Source: Myxococcales bacterium (GTDB lineage Bacteria; Myxococcota_A; Polyangia; Polyangiales; JAFGIB01). Taken from it: a DNA stretch of 42,360 bases. The DNA lies in contig JAPPOR010000401.1 of assembly GCA_028817905.1 (NCBI GenBank), forward strand, positions 1-42,360. Reading direction: 5' to 3'. Shown piece after piece: positions 9,208-42,360 of this stretch (position 1 is the stretch's first letter; every line of letters starts with the position of its first letter). The position numbers and the translations under genes were made by a program. Under the pieces are notes generated by a model. It did no database searches, was not told the DNA's origin, and saw nothing but the letters and a program-made list of their open reading frames with translations.

Positions 9208-10134
9208 GTGCCCACCACTAGCCTGCCCAAAGCCGCCGACGAGCGGGTCGATTGGATCCACAACATTCCATTCGTCGCAGTCCATCTGCTGCCCCTGCTC
9301 GCCGTCTTCACCGACGTCACCACGTTCGACGTCCTGCTCTGCATTTCGCTGTACTTCATCCGGATGTTCTTCATCACGGCTGGATATCACCGCTACTTCT
9401 CCCACCGGGCGTACAAGGTCGGGCGCGTCATGCAGGTCATCTTGGCCTTCGGAGGGGGCACAGCAGCGCAAAAGGGTGCCCTCTGGTGGGCGGCGCACCA
9501 CCGTCACCACCACAAGTACTCCGACACGGAACAGGACCGGCATTCGCCCAAGAAGGGCCTGTTTTGGAGTCACGTAGGTTGGATCGTTTGCCGCAAGTAC
9601 CGCCCAACCGACTATTCCGCCATCAAGGATCTAGCCAGCTACCCGGAGCTTCGTTGGCTGAACAAGCACCACTGGGTGCCGCCCGCATGCTTGGCGGTGG
9701 GGTGCTTTCTGGCCGGAGGCTGGAGCGCCCTGCTGATCGGCTTCTTCTTGTCCACCGTGCTGACCTATCACGGGACTTTCCTCATCAATTCCATGACCCA
9801 TCTGTTCGGCCGCCGCCGCTACGTGACGACCGACACCAGCCGCAACTCGCTCATTCTAGCGTTGCTGACCCTCGGTGAGGGCTGGCACAACAACCACCAC
9901 TACTATCAGTCATCTGCCAACCAGGGCTTCTTCTGGTGGGAAATCGACGTCAGCTACTACGTTCTCAAGCTGCTCAGCCTGTTCGGTCTGGTCCGCGATC
10001 TCCGAAACCCGCCCCAGCATGTGTTGAAAGCCAACCGCGTCGCGGATAGTCACTGGGACGTGGGCATGCTAGGGGAGAAGCTCTCCGACTCGATTGCCAC
10101 CCTTGGCGAATCGCCCGAGAGGCAACACCCTTAG
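9208..10134 (+). CDS. Acyl-CoA / acyl-lipid delta-9-type fatty acid desaturase
   Basis: This membrane di-iron desaturase introduces a cis double bond into a fatty acyl chain, probably to tune membrane fluidity. The three histidine boxes are clear: HRYFSH, HHRHHH and HNNHH, between hydrophobic stretches such as FVAVHLLPLLAVFTD and WSALLIGFFLSTVL. The motif order and spacing fit stearoyl-CoA-type desaturases. The track starts at ATG 9133, but a GTG at 9208 has GAGGAGGA about 8 bp upstream and removes 25 residues with no obvious role, so I prefer it (308 residues). The TAG stop is the first three bases of a dispersed TAGCCCGGAT repeat (see 10132). It is convergent with ridA. Substrate and exact bond position cannot be read from sequence. 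Confidence 0.9.
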   Translation: MPTTSLPKAADERVDWIHNIPFVAVHLLPLLAVFTDVTTFDVLLCISLYFIRMFFITAGYHRYFSHRAYKVGRVMQVILAFGGGTAAQKGALWWAAHHRHHHKYSDTEQDRHSPKKGLFWSHVGWIVCRKYRPTDYSAIKDLASYPELRWLNKHHWVPPACLAVGCFLAGGWSALLIGFFLSTVLTYHGTFLINSMTHLFGRRRYVTTDTSRNSLILALLTLGEGWHNNHHYYQSSANQGFFWWEIDVSYYVLKLLSLFGLVRDLRNPPQHVLKANRVADSHWDVGMLGEKLSDSIATLGESPERQHP

Positions 10135-10231
10135 CCCGGATCATCCACCAACCCGCGCCCTCGCACACCCGTTCGACCCCAGCAGGGCCTGTTCGCGGGT
10201 CTGGAATTGCGCCACGACTATTCCGGGCGGC
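10132..10231 (+). repeat. TAGCCCGGAT-family dispersed repeat, copy R1
   Basis: It begins TAGCCCGGATCATCC and fills the 83-bp space between the convergent desaturase and ridA genes. Its first three bases are the desaturase stop codon. At the other end, the complement reads TAGCCGCCCGGAATAG, an inverted sequence similar to the left end, and its last TAG is the ridA stop. It shares CTCGC, TCGAC and GACTATTCCG blocks in the same order with copy R3 at 16975. The right boundary is uncertain. Confidence 0.5.
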
Positions 10232-12267: not shown

Positions 12268-12349
12268 GGGCTCTCTCCTGGCCGGATTGTTCATCCACCT
12301 GCGAACGGATCGTGCTGGATGCGCGGGGCATTCGCCGATGGCCGGATAC

Positions 12350-12420
12350 TAGCCCGGATCAATCGTGAACTGCGCATCGCCTCGCTTGTTCTTCGACATC
12401 ACACGGCTTTCGCCGTCGAC
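12350..12420 (+). repeat. TAGCCCGGAT-family dispersed repeat, copy R2
   Basis: It begins TAGCCCGGATCAATCGTGAA and aligns with copy R3 (16975) over about 70 bp, including CTCGCTT, TCGACAT/TCGACTC, ACACGG and TTCGCCG/TTCACCG. It lies about 80 bp upstream of the enoyl-CoA hydratase start and before the tRNA-Val gene. Its right limit is unclear. Confidence 0.5.
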
Positions 12421-16840: not shown

Positions 16841-16974
16841 ATCGTCCTTCTGTTCCGTGTGGCGCTGGGCCCAGGGCTGCGCGTGGTCCTCTTCCCCATC
16901 CGCATCCACATGATGCGCACGTTCACCCCTGAAGTAGCACACTGCGTGCCAGCCTGTTAGCAGCCCATTTCGAC

Positions 16975-17060
16975 TAGCCCGGATCATTGGTGGACTTCGT
17001 CGGCTCCTCGCTTATCCCTCGACTCAACACGGGTCTTCACCGCCTTAGAAATACGGGGAC
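16975..17060 (+). repeat. TAGCCCGGAT-family dispersed repeat, copy R3
   Basis: It begins TAGCCCGGATCATTGGTGGA about 135 bp upstream of the AgmX-like start codon. It aligns with R2 over ~70 bp and shares the right-end block GACTATTCCG with R1. There is no ORF inside. Confidence 0.5.
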
Positions 17061-17348
17061 TATTCCGTCATAGTCGCCGAAAGTCCTGTGAAGACAGCCC
17101 CCTTCGCGATTCGCACGCCGAAGCCATGAATGATGGGGCCAGCACCGGAAGAGCAGGTGCACGGACCGTGGCGTCGGTGCCCTCGATGGTGCCCTCGATG
17201 CGCACTCGCGTGCGCAGGCTGTGCACGGAGCCAGGCCATCTGACCTACCCACCCGGACCGAACAACCTTGGACCTGACAGGCCTTTCGCTCTGTCACGGA
17301 ACACGGTGGCGATCCTTGTCAGGGCTGCTCAGGCCTCCCAGGCAGGGA

Positions 17349-35244: not shown

Positions 35245-36755
35245 GCCGTTCAGCTCAACGGGACAGCTCAGGCCTCGACCTACAACGAGCCGATCGGTTG
35301 GCTGCTGCCATGTTGGGGATCAGCGCGGCCATCACCCTTGCCCTGGGCTACATTGCCTTCACCAACAGCGATTTTTTCGCCGACGACATGCTATCGCTGT
35401 TCGAGCTGCGGCGGGACGGGGTGGGCCGATTCCTGCAGAGCCCTGTCAACGTGCAGTGGGTGCCCCTGCACAGGCTGGCGACGTGGGCAATCGACAGGGC
35501 GTTCGGGCACCGCTTCGGAGCGGCGCTGTCGGTATCCCTGCTATTTCATGTCGCTGGACTCGCGATGCTCTATCGCGTTGTCAGGAGACTCACGAAAGCG
35601 CAACGGTCGGCCTCTGGGCGCGACCGGGACGGACTTGCCGAGCGAGTCGCACCGGCGATGCTCGTGCTGCTCTACGCGACTCATCTCTTCGTGGGGATCC
35701 AGCTACTGTGGTGGTCCTCTGGACTGCACCGCTTGCCATACGCCCTCGCGACGCTGGTTGCGATGGACCGCTGGCTAGAGTTTCGCGAGACCACGCGCAA
35801 GCGAGACGCAGTCTGGGTTGCGTTCGCCACCCTCGTGGCGGCCGGATTCTACGCAAAAGGCCCCCTCGTGGTCCCCCACGTGCTCGCACTCGAGGCCTGT
35901 CTGATTCGTCATACGCCGTCGGAGCGACGCCTGACCCATCTGAAGGCAGCAGCGGCTCTGATGGCGTGGGCTGGACTCGTCGGATGGCTCGGTCTGAGCC
36001 TTTCGGGGCAAACGTCGTTCGTCCAGGCCAACCTGTCCCTGATCGCTCAGATCGAGTGGGAGGCACTCAAAGTGCTGCTGGCCGGCTTTGTCGGACAAGC
36101 CGCGGGACTCTACGTTCCCCTCGCGAGCCGCGCGGGCTTCCTCGTTGTCGCTATCCTCGGGATCGCAGCAGGCGTGGCGAGTGTCCGACAGCGTCGGGAA
36201 CATGTGTGGAGCTGGGTTCTGATCGGGGTTGCGATCACGGCCAACACGGCAGTCCTGGCGCTCTCCAATCGCGGCGCGGTCTGGGGCGTCATGCTGGCTC
36301 ACGGGCATCGCTACTATCTCGATCACTTGGTGGTCCTGATCCCTCTGCTGGCGCTGGTGCTTCCCGACGCGCTCGGGAGATCCTCGAGCACACCTCGGCG
36401 ATGGATTGTATGCGCCGCAATCGTCATGTTTGCCAGCGCCTCGAACGTGGCAGGGCTCCACGGCCTGTTGCGGAGCCGATATGCACCCTTTGTGCAGACG
36501 CACGCGTTCTTCGAGCGCTTCGGCGACGAGCTCGCGCGAGTGCGGGCCACGGTACCGCGACCAGAGCGCGTGTTTCAGAACGGACGGATGCCGCGACCCC
36601 TTCTCGGCATCGCTCCCCAGTACAACAGCTGGAGCCATATGGCGATGGCCATGAACCTAGACCTGCAGTTCAGCCCACGAGGGAAGTGGCTGATCGAGCC
36701 AGACGGCTCGATCGTTAGAAAGGCAGCAAACGGCAGTCCACAGCAGCGGCGCTAG
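35241..36755 (+). CDS. Polytopic membrane protein, possible glycosyltransferase of the GT-C type
   Basis: The 504-residue protein (from the GTG at 35241, overlapping the previous stop; the track's 35178 lies inside that gene) has about ten hydrophobic helices. Examples are MLGISAAITLALGYIAFT, VAPAMLVLLYATHLFVGIQLLWW and YLDHLVVLIPLLALVLPDAL. After the first helix comes SDFFADDMLSLFELRR, with paired Asp residues in the first periplasmic loop as in GT-C glycosyltransferases that use lipid-linked sugars. The C-terminal ~100 residues are soluble. I recognise no exact family. It could equally be an uncharacterised membrane protein without sugar activity. The translational coupling to the metalloprotease gene suggests they act together. 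Confidence 0.6.
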   Translation: MSRSAQRDSSGLDLQRADRLAAAMLGISAAITLALGYIAFTNSDFFADDMLSLFELRRDGVGRFLQSPVNVQWVPLHRLATWAIDRAFGHRFGAALSVSLLFHVAGLAMLYRVVRRLTKAQRSASGRDRDGLAERVAPAMLVLLYATHLFVGIQLLWWSSGLHRLPYALATLVAMDRWLEFRETTRKRDAVWVAFATLVAAGFYAKGPLVVPHVLALEACLIRHTPSERRLTHLKAAAALMAWAGLVGWLGLSLSGQTSFVQANLSLIAQIEWEALKVLLAGFVGQAAGLYVPLASRAGFLVVAILGIAAGVASVRQRREHVWSWVLIGVAITANTAVLALSNRGAVWGVMLAHGHRYYLDHLVVLIPLLALVLPDALGRSSSTPRRWIVCAAIVMFASASNVAGLHGLLRSRYAPFVQTHAFFERFGDELARVRATVPRPERVFQNGRMPRPLLGIAPQYNSWSHMAMAMNLDLQFSPRGKWLIEPDGSIVRKAANGSPQQRR

Positions 36756-36783
36756 AAGATGCGGGACAGCCGCAGAACGTCGC

Positions 36784-36837
36784 GTGAAGCCGAGACTCTG
36801 CGGGATCCGATACGGAGTTGGTGAACGATCCGGGCTA
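36784..36837 (-). repeat. TAGCCCGGAT-family dispersed repeat, copy R4
   Basis: Read on the minus strand it begins TAGCCCGGATCGTTCACCAA and ends TCTCGGCTTCAC. It matches copy R5 (42307) at 43 of 54 positions by my count. It fills most of the 92-bp gap before the thiamine-binding-type gene and ends 10 bp from that start codon. Confidence 0.65.
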
Positions 36838-36847
36838 TGCTGCGCCC

Positions 36848-37168
36848 ATGCACGTAATTGCCGATTTCTGTGTGGTCCCCCTGGGGGTCGGGGTCTCCGT
36901 TTCCGAGTATGTGGCCGCGTGCCAGCGAGTCCTCCAGGAGGCCGGGCTTGAGCATCGCATGCACGCCTACGGGACCAACGTCGAGGGCGACTGGGACGCC
37001 GTCATGACCGCGCTGCGCACCTGCCACGAGTGCATCCACGGGATGGGGGCACCGCGTATCAGTACCTCGCTGCGCCTCGGAACCCGCACCGACCGCAGCC
37101 AGCACATGGAGGACAAGATGCGCAGCGTGGTAGAGGCGCTAGCCCGCATCCATCACCAAGGCACGTGA
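36848..37168 (+). CDS. MTH1187/YqgV family thiamine-binding-type protein, C-terminus supplied by a repeat
   Basis: The small protein MHVIADFCVVPLGVGVSVSEYV...HAYGTNVEGDWDAVMTALRTCHECIHGMGAPRISTSLRLGTRTD fits the MTH1187/YqgV family. These ferredoxin-like-fold proteins bind thiamine or related thiols and form tetramers. I begin it at ATG 36848; the track's 36818 start reads through repeat R4. The last residues, ARIHHQGT, and the TGA stop come from the left inverted repeat of the MITE-like element at 37140. The domain proper ends before it, so the protein may be functional with a foreign tail. Its leader DNA is also repeat-derived. Confidence 0.8.
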   Translation: MHVIADFCVVPLGVGVSVSEYVAACQRVLQEAGLEHRMHAYGTNVEGDWDAVMTALRTCHECIHGMGAPRISTSLRLGTRTDRSQHMEDKMRSVVEALARIHHQGT

Positions 37169-37298
37169 TGATCGTGCAAGTGATCGGCTTCGCAGCTGTC
37201 GCTGAGGGAGGGAATACTCGCTGTATTTTCGACTGAAGCGAAAGCCCCGCGGAGTCGAGCAGTTGTGCGAGGGCGCGTGATTTGGTGATAGATGCGGC
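37140..37298 (+). mobile_element. MITE-like element, copy 1
   Basis: A ~159-bp element begins TAGCCCGCATCCATCACCAA and ends TTGGTGATAGATGCGG; the ends are imperfect inverted repeats of up to 28 bp. The first 56 bp are identical to copy 2 at 42160. The rest is similar, with a 14-bp insertion (or a deletion in copy 2) near 37263 and a 1-bp indel. Inside, AATAC-TCGCT-GTATT and TTTCG-ACTGAAG-CGAAA can form small hairpins. There is no transposase. The left end overlaps the 3' end of the thiamine-binding-type gene. Confidence 0.7.
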
Positions 37299-37346
37299 GA
37301 TGCTCACGGCGCTAAGGCCTGTCGCCACGGTGGCTCGTCGAGTAAC

Positions 37347-38204
37347 ATGATGGGCATGCCCCAGGTGCTTGCTACGTGCGGTGGAGACGGGTGTCCCGTC
37401 TGCCGAGCACCGGTTCGGCCGCGAATCCATCTAGGGGCGTACACACTGTTCGCATGTGAGACGTGTAGTTGCTGGTGCAGCGACGCAGGCGCGAGAAATG
37501 TGCCCACCGGTTTCGATCCGGCCGACTACTTTGACAATGATGGGGCCGACCGCGCGCGCTGGCGCTCGCTGCTTTCGAACGTGGCCGAACAGGGGGAAAT
37601 GCCGCGCAAGATCCTCGACGTCGGGTGTGGAACGGGGGCCTTCCTGGAAGAAGCCGCCCACCAGGTTCCGTCGGCAGAGTTGACCGGTATCGAGCTCGAC
37701 CCTGAACGTGCAGCACTCGCTAGACGCCGCAACCCGGAGGCCCACGTGCGGCAAGGCGATGCCCTCAGGGTACTCAGCCAGATGGATGGGCGCTTCGACT
37801 TGATCACGCTGTGGGATGTGTTCGAACATGTATGCGACCCGCGCGCCCTGCTTCAGGCCCTCGCGACCCGACTGCGCGAGGGCGGGACCATCTTCATTCA
37901 GACCATCCATGAGTACTCGCTGGTGCCCACCCTCGGGCGCCTCAGCTATCGCCTGACGGGTGGTCGCTTGCGGACAGCGGCACGCCGCACCCACGAGGCC
38001 CATCACCTGGTGTTCTTCAGCCGAGCGGGGCTCGGGCTGCTCGCCGATGCGGCCAACCTTTCTATCACCCGCCGCTGGTACGACCGCTTGGCCCGTGCTC
38101 GCATGGACGGCCACCCCGTGGTGACCGCGGCGACCGCAGCCCTGCTGACCGCCGAAAACGCCATGGGCAACGGGCTGTTCATCAACCTGGTACTGCAATC
38201 GTAG
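37347..38204 (+). CDS. SAM-dependent methyltransferase with N-terminal zinc-ribbon
   Basis: This 285-residue class I methyltransferase has a small N-terminal cysteine cluster (CPVC at 16-19 and CETC at 37-40) likely to bind zinc. The SAM-binding motif ILDVGCGTGAFLEEA starts at residue 89, GIELDPERAALA is the second strand acidic residue region, and FDLITLWDVFEH is motif IV. This architecture, zinc ribbon plus methyltransferase plus EAHHLVFFSRAGL, is common in surface-polysaccharide and secondary-metabolite clusters (UbiE/type 11-12-like). The start could be 37347 or the ATGs 3 or 9 bp later. The substrate is unknown; the nearby glycosyltransferases suggest a sugar or lipid-linked glycan. Confidence 0.83.
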   Translation: MMGMPQVLATCGGDGCPVCRAPVRPRIHLGAYTLFACETCSCWCSDAGARNVPTGFDPADYFDNDGADRARWRSLLSNVAEQGEMPRKILDVGCGTGAFLEEAAHQVPSAELTGIELDPERAALARRRNPEAHVRQGDALRVLSQMDGRFDLITLWDVFEHVCDPRALLQALATRLREGGTIFIQTIHEYSLVPTLGRLSYRLTGGRLRTAARRTHEAHHLVFFSRAGLGLLADAANLSITRRWYDRLARARMDGHPVVTAATAALLTAENAMGNGLFINLVLQS

Positions 38205-38224
38205 GACAAGACGGGTGGCGTCGT

Positions 38225-40465
38225 TCAACGGGGATAGGCGTCCACGGCTACCTTCCCGGCGTTGCGTACCTGCTCCAACGTGACCTCGCAACGACCGATG
38301 GGGCCGTGGTCGGAAACCAGCGTCCAATAGGGCCCGGTCTCAACGAACTCCCCCGTGCGGTTGGTCTCAAGCGGAACGACGACCTCAAACGAACCGTCGC
38401 CTTCCGCGACCGCCCATGCGCGATAAGGCAAGTCATGGCCGCGAAACTTGAGGTTGATCCTGGCCTCGACAATCGCGCGGCCCGGAGCCTTGCCAGCAAG
38501 CCTCGCCCCCGCGACACGCTCGTAGGCCCACAGTGCTGGCAGGTAGAACGGAACGCCCTGAGCTCGCTCCTCCGAGGCCCAGCGAGGCGCGAACTGTGCA
38601 GCATGGCGAACGCCCCTGGATGCCACGCCGCTGCCCGCGAGCGCGGTGACCGCCATCGGAACCTGTCTCACAAAGTCGAGGTCCACCATTCCGCCGGCTG
38701 GCCCGCCCCTCAGAAGCGTACGCCTTTGAGGACCGAGACGTATTCCCTGATAGAAAGCGGCCCCCGTCACCAACCATCCCAGGTCGCGTGCCTCCATGAA
38801 GTGCAGCGCACGCGCAACATCGCCCGTCAACGCCCGCCGAACCTGGGCCACCCCATCGGCGCTGACCACGTAGAGAAAGCCATTTGCAACCACGCCAGCG
38901 CGTGCCGGCCACATCATGTGGTGGGCACGCCCCCAATCGACCAATACGCCTGCGCGTGTGCCGTCAGCACGCACGTGGTTGTGCTCGGACAGGTATGCGG
39001 AGGCCCCGGCGACTGCCTTGGGTCGGGGCTCGCTCTCCAATCGCATGCGCCCCCGTATCCCCTCATCTGCCAACCCTAGGGCCAGCGTGACAAGCAACAG
39101 CGCGGGACCGGGCATCCATGCCGGGCGCGGCATCCAGCGACCAAGAAGCTGATACACGCCCAAGGCGGACCAGACCACGAGCAGGGGAAACAGCGCGCGC
39201 ACGAAACGCTGCTGCATCATGGATAGCAGCAGCAGCCATCCTCCCATGGTAAGCATGGCGAGCGCCGCGCCGCGCGCGCGGCGCAGGGACCAGAATATCC
39301 CCGCGGGCAACAGCACCGGGCTCGCGTAGGCCAACGCGCCAAAGTGATAGACCGGCCAGGCGAGGCCCCTGGAAAGCAGCGGCTCAGCCTCATCCACGCC
39401 CTGCATCGACACGTTTGCGCGCAGCATATGACCGAAGACGGCCTTCTCGATCGGGTCGCGCAGGGTGTCCCAGGCGCCCAACCCAGCCAAGCCGAGGAGA
39501 AGTAGCCCACCGGCGGCCAGCGCCCGAGCACCCACGGCCCGCGGGTCGCTCCGCTCCGGCAACAGGCGCCAGGCAAGCCCGTGGCCGATTGTCAGCGCAA
39601 GCGCGACGGCCAACATGCAAAGGGGGTAGAGCAAAGAGGGGTACGCAAAGGCGAACCAGCGACCGTGAACGCGCAAACCCGGCAAGAACGTCCAGGCGAT
39701 CACCCCCGCGGCCACCCCGAACGCGAGGGCACCGGAGCCCACCCATTGAGGCGCGCTTGAGCGGCCGTGCAAGGCCCGGGCGAGCAGCACCAGCGCGACC
39801 GGGACGCTATAGAGAAGGCTGACGTTGAACAGGTACACGCCTGCCCACAACAGCGTCGCCCCCGAGAGTTCCCAGGCCAGTCCGGCGTGGCTCTGCCGCA
39901 GGCGAACCACAAGCCACAGCACAAGCGAGATCACAAGCGGGCCCTCGAGCACATGGTGATCGGTATTGCCCACCAGCGACATACGGACACCGATCGGGAC
40001 CATCCCCGCAAGCGCGGTCACGCCCAACAGGAGCCAGGCTCGGCCCGATGAGCGGTGGGACAGGGACGCACAAAGCGTACAGGTCAACCCGATCGTTACC
40101 AGGCCGAGGACCACCGGCACCCAGACGATCACGCCGGCGGCTCGCACCTCGTCGCCGGCGCAACCGAACAGCCAGGGCCACAGCGCAAGCAGCTGGTCAT
40201 AGCCCGGCGGCCAATGGCAATAGGCCCCTTCGGGCCAATACATGAGCGGGTCAAAAACCGGCGCATGCGGGAACTCCTGGGCGGTGCGCAGCGCGCGATG
40301 CAAATGATAGGCACCGTCTCCAGTCAGAGCAGTGGGGTAGTCGCCGACGAGCGCCGTACGGCTAGATGAGGCCCTCAGCCACAGGCCAGCCGCCAGTAGC
40401 GAAAACCCTCCAGCCCAGGTGGCCCCGAGCTGAAGCACCCTGTCAGGTGGCAACCTACCCCCCAC
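38225..40465 (-). CDS. STT3/PglB-like membrane oligosaccharyltransferase homologue
   Basis: The 746-residue protein has about 12 hydrophobic helices and a C-terminal soluble part. Three features recall the STT3/AglB/PglB family, which moves a glycan from a polyprenyl carrier to protein. They are [10 protein letters not shown] (Asp50, the first-loop acidic motif), [11 protein letters not shown] (168-175, like the DHHVAE segment) and [24 protein letters not shown] (the position of WWDYG, here VDWG). The loss of both Trp residues in that motif means acceptor recognition may differ or the protein may be another GT-C enzyme. The start is a GTG at 40465 without clear Shine-Dalgarno, so the N-terminus is tentative. 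It is divergent from the GT2 gene with only ~35 bp between. Confidence 0.72.
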
Positions 40466-40500
40466 GTGACATACAATATTGGTGTACCAAGACGTTATTG

Positions 40501-41289
40501 GTGAACACCTTGAAGTGCTCCGTGCGGCTCTCGATTCTCATTCCAGCGTACCAGGAACAAGCCACCATCGCCGAGGTATTGCGGCGTGTAGCAGCAGTTC
40601 CGACGGAAGCCCACGGCTTCGACAAGGAGATCGTCGTCTGCGATGACGGCTCGACGGATGACACCCTGGCGATCGTCGATGCGGTCGCACGGGAGGTTCC
40701 CTGCATCACCGTCGTGAAGCATGACCGCAACCGTGGCAAGGGTGCCTCGATTCGCACATGCCTACGCGCGGCCACCGGTGACTACTGCCTGGTGCAGGAC
40801 GCCGATCTCGAATACGACGTAACTGACTACCCATCCATCCTCTCCGCACTGGCACAGGGTGCAGACGTCGTCTATGGGTCACGCTTCTTGCGCCGTCGGA
40901 TCCCGCAAGGGATGCAGCTGCCCAACTGGATCTGCAACCATATCCTGACCACCACCTCCAATCTGCTCTTCGGTACGCACATCACCGATGAAGCGACTTG
41001 CTTCAAGGCCTTCCGAACACCTCTGCTGCGTGACCTGAAGCTCGAGTGCGACAGCTTCGATTTCTGCCCTGAGGTCACCGCCAAGGTGGGTGCACGTGGC
41101 ATCGCGATTGTCGAGGTGCCGATCGGCTACCACGCACGCACCCACGCCGAGGGCAAGAAGATCCACTGGGTGCACGGCTTCCAGGCCCTGTGGGCGCTAT
41201 TGAAGTACCGGGCGATCACGTGGAGTGAACAGGCCACACCCCGCCTGCAGCCATCCTCCGACGCCGAAGTCATGAACGATCCGCGCTAG
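40501..41289 (+). CDS. GT2 family glycosyltransferase (polyprenyl-phosphate mannose/glucose synthase-like)
   Basis: Enzymes of this type move a sugar from a nucleotide donor to polyprenyl phosphate. The fold opens with [31 protein letters not shown] binds the nucleotide, [17 protein letters not shown] follows, and QDADLEYD holds the DxD metal motif. [13 protein letters not shown] and the later [14 protein letters not shown] are typical of Dpm1-like proteins. No C-terminal membrane helices are present. The start is not clear: GTG 40501 or GTG 40522, both without good Shine-Dalgarno. The track's 40366 start overlaps the divergent STT3-like gene. A DPM-like enzyme next to an STT3-like protein suggests it supplies the lipid-linked sugar. 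Confidence 0.85.
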
Positions 41290-41293
41290 CTAG

Positions 41294-42076
41294 CTAGCGG
41301 TCCCCCGTCCGCGGTGCCACAGGCCCGTGCATCTTGAGTGCTTGGTAGCTCGCGTGGTCGGTAGCGGCATCAACAGCCTCGCGTAGGGCGATGTCGTCCG
41401 GTTCCGTACGGCGCGCCTCGATCCCATCGCGCTCGGACCCGCTGGCCTGCCACTGTTCGACCATGGCAGTTGGCAGGGCTAGACCCAGAAAGTCGTAGAG
41501 TCTCTGGAGCTGCAGGCCCTGTCGATACAGCCCTTCATAGTCCAAGACGAAGACCGGGCGACCACGGCGCAGGTTCTCGAGGGTGTTGCGGTTCGCGGAG
41601 TTCCACTCCGCCATGGCCGCTTGCCAGCCACGCTCCACGGGCCAGTCTCGCCGCCCTGCCCCGCCTCTTCGGCGCGTTGCATCGGCCCGACGCTGGTACG
41701 ATAGCGCGACTGCGTAGGGCTCGCGCAGCATGTGGATCACTCGGCAATCCGGAAACCACCTGTCCAGGACGTCGTAGTATTCGGTCAGCCTTGGCAGTTT
41801 GTCGCCGATCCAGATCGCGTCATCGAAGTACGCCCAGGCCTGACGGTAGTATGGCTGGGGACGGGCGTGGTGGGAGTCCTCGGAACTGAACTCGAGGCAA
41901 AATCGCTGCTTCTCGAATAGCGCTGGTGTAAACGCCCCCGGCTGCTTGAGGCGCCAGGCGTAACGTTCACGACCCATCACGATGCGGCGATCGCACCGAA
42001 GGAAGTCGGCCATGGTCGTGGTCCCTGAGCGGGAACTTCCTGTGATGAACAGATGGCCCTTGGTGACGAGGTGCAT
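41294..42076 (-). CDS. Sulfotransferase family protein
   Basis: Sulfotransferases move sulfate from PAPS to a hydroxyl or amine. FITGSSRSGTTTMADFL (residues 10-26) is the 5'-phosphosulfate-binding loop, and CRVIHMLREPYAVALSY holds the 3'-phosphate-binding Arg. KLPRLTEYYDVLDRWFPD and FVLDYEGLYRQG also fit the bacterial Sulfotransfer_3-like group. I take the ATG at 42076 (260 residues) with AGGGAG upstream; the track's 42169 start adds 31 residues next to the MITE. The gene lies tail to tail with the GT2 gene, 4 bp apart. A sulfated glycan is a reasonable target, but none can be named. Confidence 0.87.
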   Translation of the reverse strand: MHLVTKGHLFITGSSRSGTTTMADFLRCDRRIVMGRERYAWRLKQPGAFTPALFEKQRFCLEFSSEDSHHARPQPYYRQAWAYFDDAIWIGDKLPRLTEYYDVLDRWFPDCRVIHMLREPYAVALSYQRRADATRRRGGAGRRDWPVERGWQAAMAEWNSANRNTLENLRRGRPVFVLDYEGLYRQGLQLQRLYDFLGLALPTAMVEQWQASGSERDGIEARRTEPDDIALREAVDAATDHASYQALKMHGPVAPRTGDR

Positions 42077-42159
42077 GCCCGGCTCCCTGGTCGTGCTGCT
42101 AGCCAGGGTGACACGAACGGCGGGGCGCGCCGAAGCTTGAAGAAGCGCCCAACGGGCCT

Positions 42160-42308
42160 TAGCCCGCATCCATCACCAAGGCACGTGATGATCGTGCAAG
42201 TGATCGGCTTCGCAGGGGTTTCGGTGAAGGAGGAATACTCGCAGTATCTTCGACTGAAGCGAAAGCCCTGCGGAGTCGAGCACGTGATTTGGTGATGTAT
42301 GCGGGTTA
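42160..42308 (+). mobile_element. MITE-like element, copy 2
   Basis: A ~149-bp copy of the element at 37140. The left end TAGCCCGCATCCATCACCAA and the complement of the right end (TAACCCGCATACATCACCAA) match at 24 of 28 positions by my count, both ending in CACGTG. It lies ~85 bp upstream of the sulfotransferase start and abuts repeat R5. A 35-codon frame (MIVQVIGFAGVSVKEE...) is open here but frameshifted in copy 1. Confidence 0.7.
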
Positions 42309-42360
42309 GCCCGGATTATTCATGAACTCTGCGTCGGATCGCGCAGGGATTCGGCTTCAC
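42307..42360 (+). repeat. TAGCCCGGAT-family dispersed repeat, copy R5 (runs off the edge)
   Basis: It begins TAGCCCGGATTATTCATGAA directly at the right end of MITE copy 2, sharing the bases TA. It matches R4 at about 80 percent over 54 bp and continues past the window end. Confidence 0.65.

What the first reader, a model, noticed from the sequence alone, without database searches (positions are those of the whole stretch)
37140..42308. Two-copy MITE-like element with 28-bp terminal inverted repeats
Seen: two ~150-160-bp copies, 5 kb apart in the same orientation, with an identical 56-bp left part and matching inverted ends (TAGCCCGCATC...CACGTG). The internal small hairpins are kept. There is no transposase, and a one-base indel breaks the only small ORF, so the DNA and not a protein seems to be the conserved unit. 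This is how a non-autonomous transposable element looks; I could not match it to a named family.
Basis: partly seen in the sequence, partly recalled or inferred. Interest (0 to 1): 0.7.

Follow-up and report, generated by a model that had tools for sequence, protein, structure and literature searches.

The report
Cross-phylum hairpin MITE family, CTAG-flanked
The two repeats belong to a family of roughly 160-base, protein-less jumping DNA hairpins that has filled this bacterium's genome with hundreds of copies, and relatives with the same ends and hairpin layout occur in many bacterial phyla although the enzyme that moves them is still unidentified.

Summary
The two copies (37143-37298 and 42163-42305) belong to a 158-bp element, "A", with about 280 assembled copies in this 11.1-Mb genome: 559 ends against 1 in the control pattern. 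A sister subfamily, "B", is also abundant. Together they make up about 1.4% of an unbiased sample, and many contigs end inside them. Element A folds almost end to end into one hairpin, lies between genes, and is flanked by CTAG. Where the flank deviates it tends to be the same 4-mer in direct orientation on both sides (window copy 2: TTAG/TTAG), which points to a 4-bp target duplication. One A copy sits inside a B copy whose intact relatives show the empty site. So the MITE reading holds. Beyond it, the ends CTAGCCCG[G/C]AT..TCA occur in many phyla on hairpins of about 165-250 bp, and in one subclass an asymmetric, covarying hairpin layout is shared by Myxococcota and Gammaproteobacteria. No element carrying its own transposase was found; IS1380, IS4/IS5-type and RAYT candidates were tested and not supported. 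The likely mechanism is mobilisation in trans by an unidentified, CTAG-preferring, probably DDE transposase.

The parts
37139..37142 (.). CTAG at the left edge of copy 1 (presumed target duplication; the right-hand copy at 37299-37302 has decayed to GATG)
37143..37298 (+). copy 1 of element A (156 bp between the flanks, hairpin, no ORF of its own)
42159..42162 (.). TTAG, left copy of the 4-bp target duplication of copy 2
42163..42305 (+). copy 2 of element A (143 bp, 15 bp shorter than the 158-bp standard copy); 28-nt terminal arms 42160-42187 / 42281-42308
42306..42309 (.). TTAG, right copy of the target duplication of copy 2, shared with the left edge of the next element
42306..42360 (+). 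beginning of a sister element (subfamily B, CCCGGATTATTCATGAA...), cut off by the end of the contig
16974..17138 (+). divergent, nearly full-length B-type copy
12349..12418 (+). half element (one end plus about 65 bp)
36771..36837 (+). half element just 3' of the gene ending at 36755
10132..10189 (+). weak half element
41257..41289 (+). element end (...CATGAACGATCCGCGCTAG) overlapping the last codons of the glycosyltransferase ORF 40366-41289
36848..37168 (+). MTH1187-family gene whose last codons and stop come from element copy 1: the TIGR00106 match ends at residue 97 and the element begins at codon 98
   Evidence: and sequence

Best explanation
The repeats are copies of a MITE-type non-autonomous transposable element. 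SHOWN: hundreds of dispersed, nearly identical, gene-less, palindromic copies; conserved ends CCCGCATCCATCACCAA...TTGGTGATGGATGCGGG; CTAG flanks; intergenic bias; one nested insertion with an empty site; relatives with the same ends and hairpin layout in other phyla. MODERATELY SUPPORTED: a 4-bp target duplication. INFERRED: a transposase supplied in trans binds the two ~20-bp ends, cuts the element out at the junction with CTAG, and inserts it into another NTAG (mostly CTAG) site with a 4-bp stagger. The ends of earlier insertions offer fresh CTAG sites, which would explain the head-to-tail and nested clusters. The conserved bulged hairpin between the ends may be recognised by the enzyme or by a host factor, or may help the element move when the DNA is single-stranded. 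No protein is made from the element.
For: Copy number: 277+282 ends against 0+1 in the control; 22 copies or fragments in 180 kb of contigs picked without regard to the element, 1.4% of the sequence, and 8 of 20 such contigs have a copy within 60 nt of an end. Recent spread: 22 full-length copies are 94-99% identical to the consensus. Target duplication: non-palindromic flanks are shared in direct orientation in 3 of 39 elements not chosen by flank (shuffle P 0.015), and in 5 of 44 when all DTAG-flanked ends are added (P 0.0012; 1 inverted). Empty site: joining the flanks of A copy L042:2530-2688, minus 4 bp, gives a sequence that aligns end to end with intact B elements, with the insertion point at B's internal CTAG. 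Location: 19 of 21 copies lie almost wholly outside predicted genes, against 11% of random 160-bp windows. Patchiness: the end pattern is in 15 of 184 genomes of the order, 641 hits here and 99 in G127, but 0 in most close relatives of G127. Structure: 93.5% of cells pair and 16 of 33 pairs have compensatory changes on a cross-phylum alignment; none of 500 shuffles reaches this.
Against: No autonomous element or transposase with these ends was found in any genome or locus examined. Most flanks are CTAG, a palindrome, so the duplication test rests on few informative copies, and about half of the non-CTAG cases are mixed. No orthologous empty site in a relative was tested. Conservation of internal structure across phyla is more than a plain MITE needs.
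Confidence: 0.75

Rival explanations
1. A REP/REPIN-like element mobilised as single-stranded hairpin DNA by a RAYT-type (Y1, HUH) transposase. The tetranucleotide plus CCCGGAT foot looks like known REPs, for example GTAGCCCGGATGCAATCCGGG of Pseudomonas mendocina.
For: End sequence resembles that REP. 31-34-bp mini palindromes CTAGCCCGGATNNTTCATGAANNATCCGGGCTAG exist. The hairpin is long, bulged and asymmetric. RAYT-like genes occur in the same family of genomes.
Against: The only Y1_Tnp match in this genome is a weak, frame-broken fragment that abuts an A copy at a contig end. RAYT loci of the relatives carry no A/B elements close by; only one B-type end lies in a fetched flank. Direct 4-bp duplications are not expected from Y1 enzymes (established knowledge). 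The flanks read CTAG, not the GTAG...CTAC of inverted REPs.
Confidence: 0.12
2. A conserved structured RNA or transcription-terminator cassette spread by selection or gene conversion, not by transposition.
For: Strong hairpin with covariation; intergenic and often at 3' ends of genes.
Against: No Rfam match. Nested insertion with an empty site, mosaic clusters, patchy copy number from 0 to hundreds among relatives, near-identical copies.
Confidence: 0.08
3. Remnants of a known IS family, such as IS1380 or an IS4/IS5-type IS with YTAR-like targets, whose full-length copies were lost from this fragmented assembly. This is a special case of the MITE reading in which the partner is already known.
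For: A 4-bp NTAG target and CC-starting ends would suit such an IS (own knowledge). The shortest of the contigs fetched is about 2.6 kb, so collapsed multi-copy IS could be missing from this bin.
Against: No PF13701 or PF01609 match in the genome. The single DUF772 gene here and those in relatives lack these ends. IS1380-type genes in element-bearing genomes do not lie between such ends.
Confidence: 0.25

Closest known systems
Bacterial MITEs in general (Correia, ERIC, Nezha, Chunjie, QMITE; review PMC10969869)
   Same: Under 500 bp, no transposase, terminal inverted repeats, direct repeats around younger copies, intergenic, stable stem-loop, partial and clustered copies
   Different: GC-rich, not AT-rich; the whole element is one hairpin; ends and part of the interior are shared between phyla; no parent IS known
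Chunjie MITE of Geobacter uraniireducens (178-235 bp, intergenic, partial copies; PMC10969869)
   Same: Similar size, intergenic, many partial copies; host belongs to a lineage long classed in the Deltaproteobacteria, as do many element-bearing MAGs here
   Different: Sequence could not be compared here (original paper not held), so identity or relation is untested
REP/BIME/REPIN with RAYT transposase (PMC2817692)
   Same: Tetranucleotide followed by CCCGGAT; palindromic; high copy number; intergenic
   Different: About 160-200 bp with asymmetric interior, CTAG at both edges, direct 4-bp repeats, no linked intact RAYT
IS5/IS701-type IS with YTAR targets (own knowledge)
   Same: 4-bp NTAG target preference
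   Different: No transposase with these ends found

Membership tests
MITE | short (<500 bp), no coding capacity | tested here: met
   158-bp standard copy, no ORF of its own
MITE | terminal inverted repeats | tested here: met
   28-nt arms in copy 2, 22-nt in copy 1, 86% complementary
MITE | multicopy and dispersed in the genome | tested here: met
   559 ends, control 1
MITE | target-site duplication around copies | tested here: met
   4-bp direct NTAG repeats, shuffle P 0.015 to 0.0012; most flanks are the uninformative palindrome CTAG
MITE | empty sites | tested here: met
   one nested A-in-B insertion against intact B copies; orthologous empty sites in relatives not tested
MITE | autonomous partner IS with the same ends | tested here: inconclusive
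   none found in PF13701, PF01609, PF05598 and PF01797 searches or between end pairs; the fragmented assembly may hide it and other transposase families were not searched; a known partner is usual but not required to call something a MITE
REPIN/RAYT | REP palindrome with its own small stem at each end and GTAG/GGAG foot | tested here: not met
   ends pair with each other over the whole element, foot is CTAG
REPIN/RAYT | RAYT gene in the genome flanked by the repeat | tested here: not met
   one broken Y1 fragment next to an A copy at a contig end; RAYT loci of relatives lack the repeat close by
Known structured RNA (Rfam) | match to a family above threshold | tested here: not met
Chunjie MITE | sequence identity of ends and target repeat | not testable with these tools
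   original paper not held

The most novel reading that the evidence does not exclude
An ancient, cross-phylum family of gene-less hairpin elements with a shared 20-bp end and a conserved asymmetric internal hairpin, moved in trans by a so far unrecognised enzyme that uses CTAG targets and reads the folded hairpin, not only the terminal repeats; in effect a new mobilisation system of which only the substrate is visible.
Probability: 0.25. Interest if true: 0.85.

Novelty: new variant of a known kind. Interest (0 to 1): 0.6.

Why it matters
The same ends recur in Myxococcota, other Deltaproteobacteria-classed MAGs, Nitrospira, Planctomycetota, Verrucomicrobia, Gammaproteobacteria, Bacteroidota and others, in hundreds of copies per genome in some, and they break the assembly of this genome. 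Such a widespread orphan substrate points to a widespread enzyme that has been overlooked, and element-rich complete genomes give a direct way to look for it.

Tried and rejected
Autonomous partner: IS1380 (PF13701) absent here and not between such ends elsewhere; DDE_Tnp_1 (PF01609) absent; DUF772 transposases lack the ends; RAYT/Y1. End pairs 0.8-4 kb apart in 80 loci of many phyla and in about 380 kb of two complete MAG chromosomes enclosed ordinary genes or chance partners. Viral contigs gave mostly chance single hits plus a few elements. Plasmid searches found single copies in Persicobacter and Ca. Magnetococcus, no IS with these ends. Rfam: nothing. Literature: no paper in the library was found to print these ends as a mobile element; the one relevant match is the P. 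mendocina REP. An apparent strand asymmetry of ends in G185 is probably a listing artefact. In G185 and G184 the flank test was uninformative: 1 direct, 1 inverted. L407, an IS1380 pseudogene next to an end, is an insertion next to or into that gene, not an autonomous copy.

Full report
OBSERVATION. The two copies are as described. The whole genome (11.1 Mb, 1110 contigs) holds the 17-bp end CCCGCATCCATCACCAA, with up to 2 mismatches, 277 times forward and 282 times reverse; the reversed control pattern occurs 0 and 1 times. Alignment of retrieved copies defines element A as 158 bp between CTAG flanks. Window copy 2 lacks 15 bp and window copy 1 has a damaged right edge. A sister subfamily B (CTAGCCCGGATTATTCATGAA..., about 160 bp) is interspersed and often adjoins A, sharing the CTAG; the window's last 55 bases are such a B, and the contig ends in it. 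In 180 kb of contigs picked without regard to the element, 22 loci (1.4% of the sequence) belong to the family, and 8 of 20 contigs have a copy within 60 nt of an end.

MOBILITY. Full-length A copies are 94-99% identical to the consensus. Because CTAG is a palindrome it cannot separate a target duplication from an inverted end; deviating flanks can. Among 39 elements not chosen by flank, 3 have the same non-palindromic 4-mer on both sides in direct orientation (TTAG, TTAG, CTAC) and none in inverted orientation (shuffle P 0.015). Adding all ends of the genome with A, G or T before TAG gives 5 direct and 1 inverted of 44 (P 0.0012). A copy of A inside a B element, at B's internal CTAG, gives an empty site when the flanks are joined: the joined sequence aligns over its whole length with intact B copies, although the right-hand 4-mer there has changed. 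Of 21 elements, 19 lie nearly outside predicted genes, against 11% of random windows. Copy 1 has replaced the end of an MTH1187-family gene: the family profile ends at residue 97 and the element starts at codon 98.

DISTRIBUTION. The end pattern CTAGCCCGSATNNWTCA is found in 15 of 184 genomes of the order: 641 hits here, 29 in G004 of the same family, 34 in G085, 99 in G127, and none in most close relatives of G127. Where both ends were found they mostly enclose 160-250-bp hairpins without genes; 31-34-bp mini palindromes also occur.

STRUCTURE. Elements from this genome, G004, G033, Rhodanobacteraceae, Dokdonella, Sedimenticola and Granulosicoccaceae align over their length. The arms are asymmetric: CACGCGCCCTCGC(TTG) on one side, CTGCGCGATCATCGCGCG on the other, with a tip of the type AATAC-loop-GTATT. 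On this alignment 93.5% of cells pair against 81.7% after shuffling, with 16 pairs changed on both sides and no shuffle as high; sliding the partners destroys the signal. The structure was derived from the same alignment, so the percentage paired is favoured; the double changes are the stronger evidence. A second layout (tip GAGGCGTACT...AGTACGTCGCAGG) is seen by eye in Deltaproteobacteria-classed MAGs, Nitrospira and G127; it was not tested statistically. Rfam has no match.

PARTNER. No element with these ends and a transposase was found. IS1380 and DDE_Tnp_1 are absent from this genome. The DUF772 transposases here and in relatives lack the ends. The only Y1 transposase match is a broken fragment abutted by an A copy, and RAYT loci in relatives do not carry the repeat close by. 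IS1380 genes in element-bearing genomes are not bounded by the ends. Because the assembly breaks at repeats and the shortest contig fetched was 2.65 kb, a multi-copy IS could be missing here; complete MAG chromosomes were only partly examined.

VERDICT. A MITE in the working sense, by every tested feature except that no autonomous partner is known. It is a variant and not just another member, because the ends and, in one subclass, an asymmetric hairpin are shared between phyla while the moving enzyme is unknown. How it moves (DDE transposase in trans, CTAG target, 4-bp stagger) is inferred.

Noticed in passing
G000 loci L031:7221, L041:6822, L102:18867/19049, L105, L106, L110, L114, L115 and others: A second repeat family in the same genome with ends CTAGCGACCTTGTCC...TCAAGGTCGCTAG, also CTAG-flanked; A copies adjoin its ends in places (L237, L239).
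   Followed up: partly
L031:7428-7510, L041:6637, L046:879-972: A third repeat family with ends TAGAATCCTTGAC...GTCAAGGATTCTA, also next to TAG.
   Followed up: no
L119:1278-1665 (G000:C60): Frame-broken RAYT-like (Y1_Tnp) gene with short tandem repeats GGACGATTCAAAGCA upstream and an A element directly downstream at the contig end.
   Followed up: partly
window 38225-40465 (-) and 40366-41289 (+): A protein with sub-threshold similarity to archaeal STT3 oligosaccharyl transferase next to a glycosyltransferase with sub-threshold similarity to AglJ, suggesting an N-glycosylation-type gene pair in a bacterium.
   Followed up: no
L043:6103-6198: Long near-perfect inverted repeat (GGCTTCACAGGGTATTCGGCGACC...) that looks like a B element with its interior rearranged.
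   Followed up: no
L306:3837-4823 (CP070689.1): A permease-like gene lies between two 29-31-bp mini palindromes with the same ends, like a composite unit.
   Followed up: no
L401:8639-8865, L403:4746-4972 (G185): Longer element variants carry an extra 49-bp hairpin at the same internal place.
   Followed up: no
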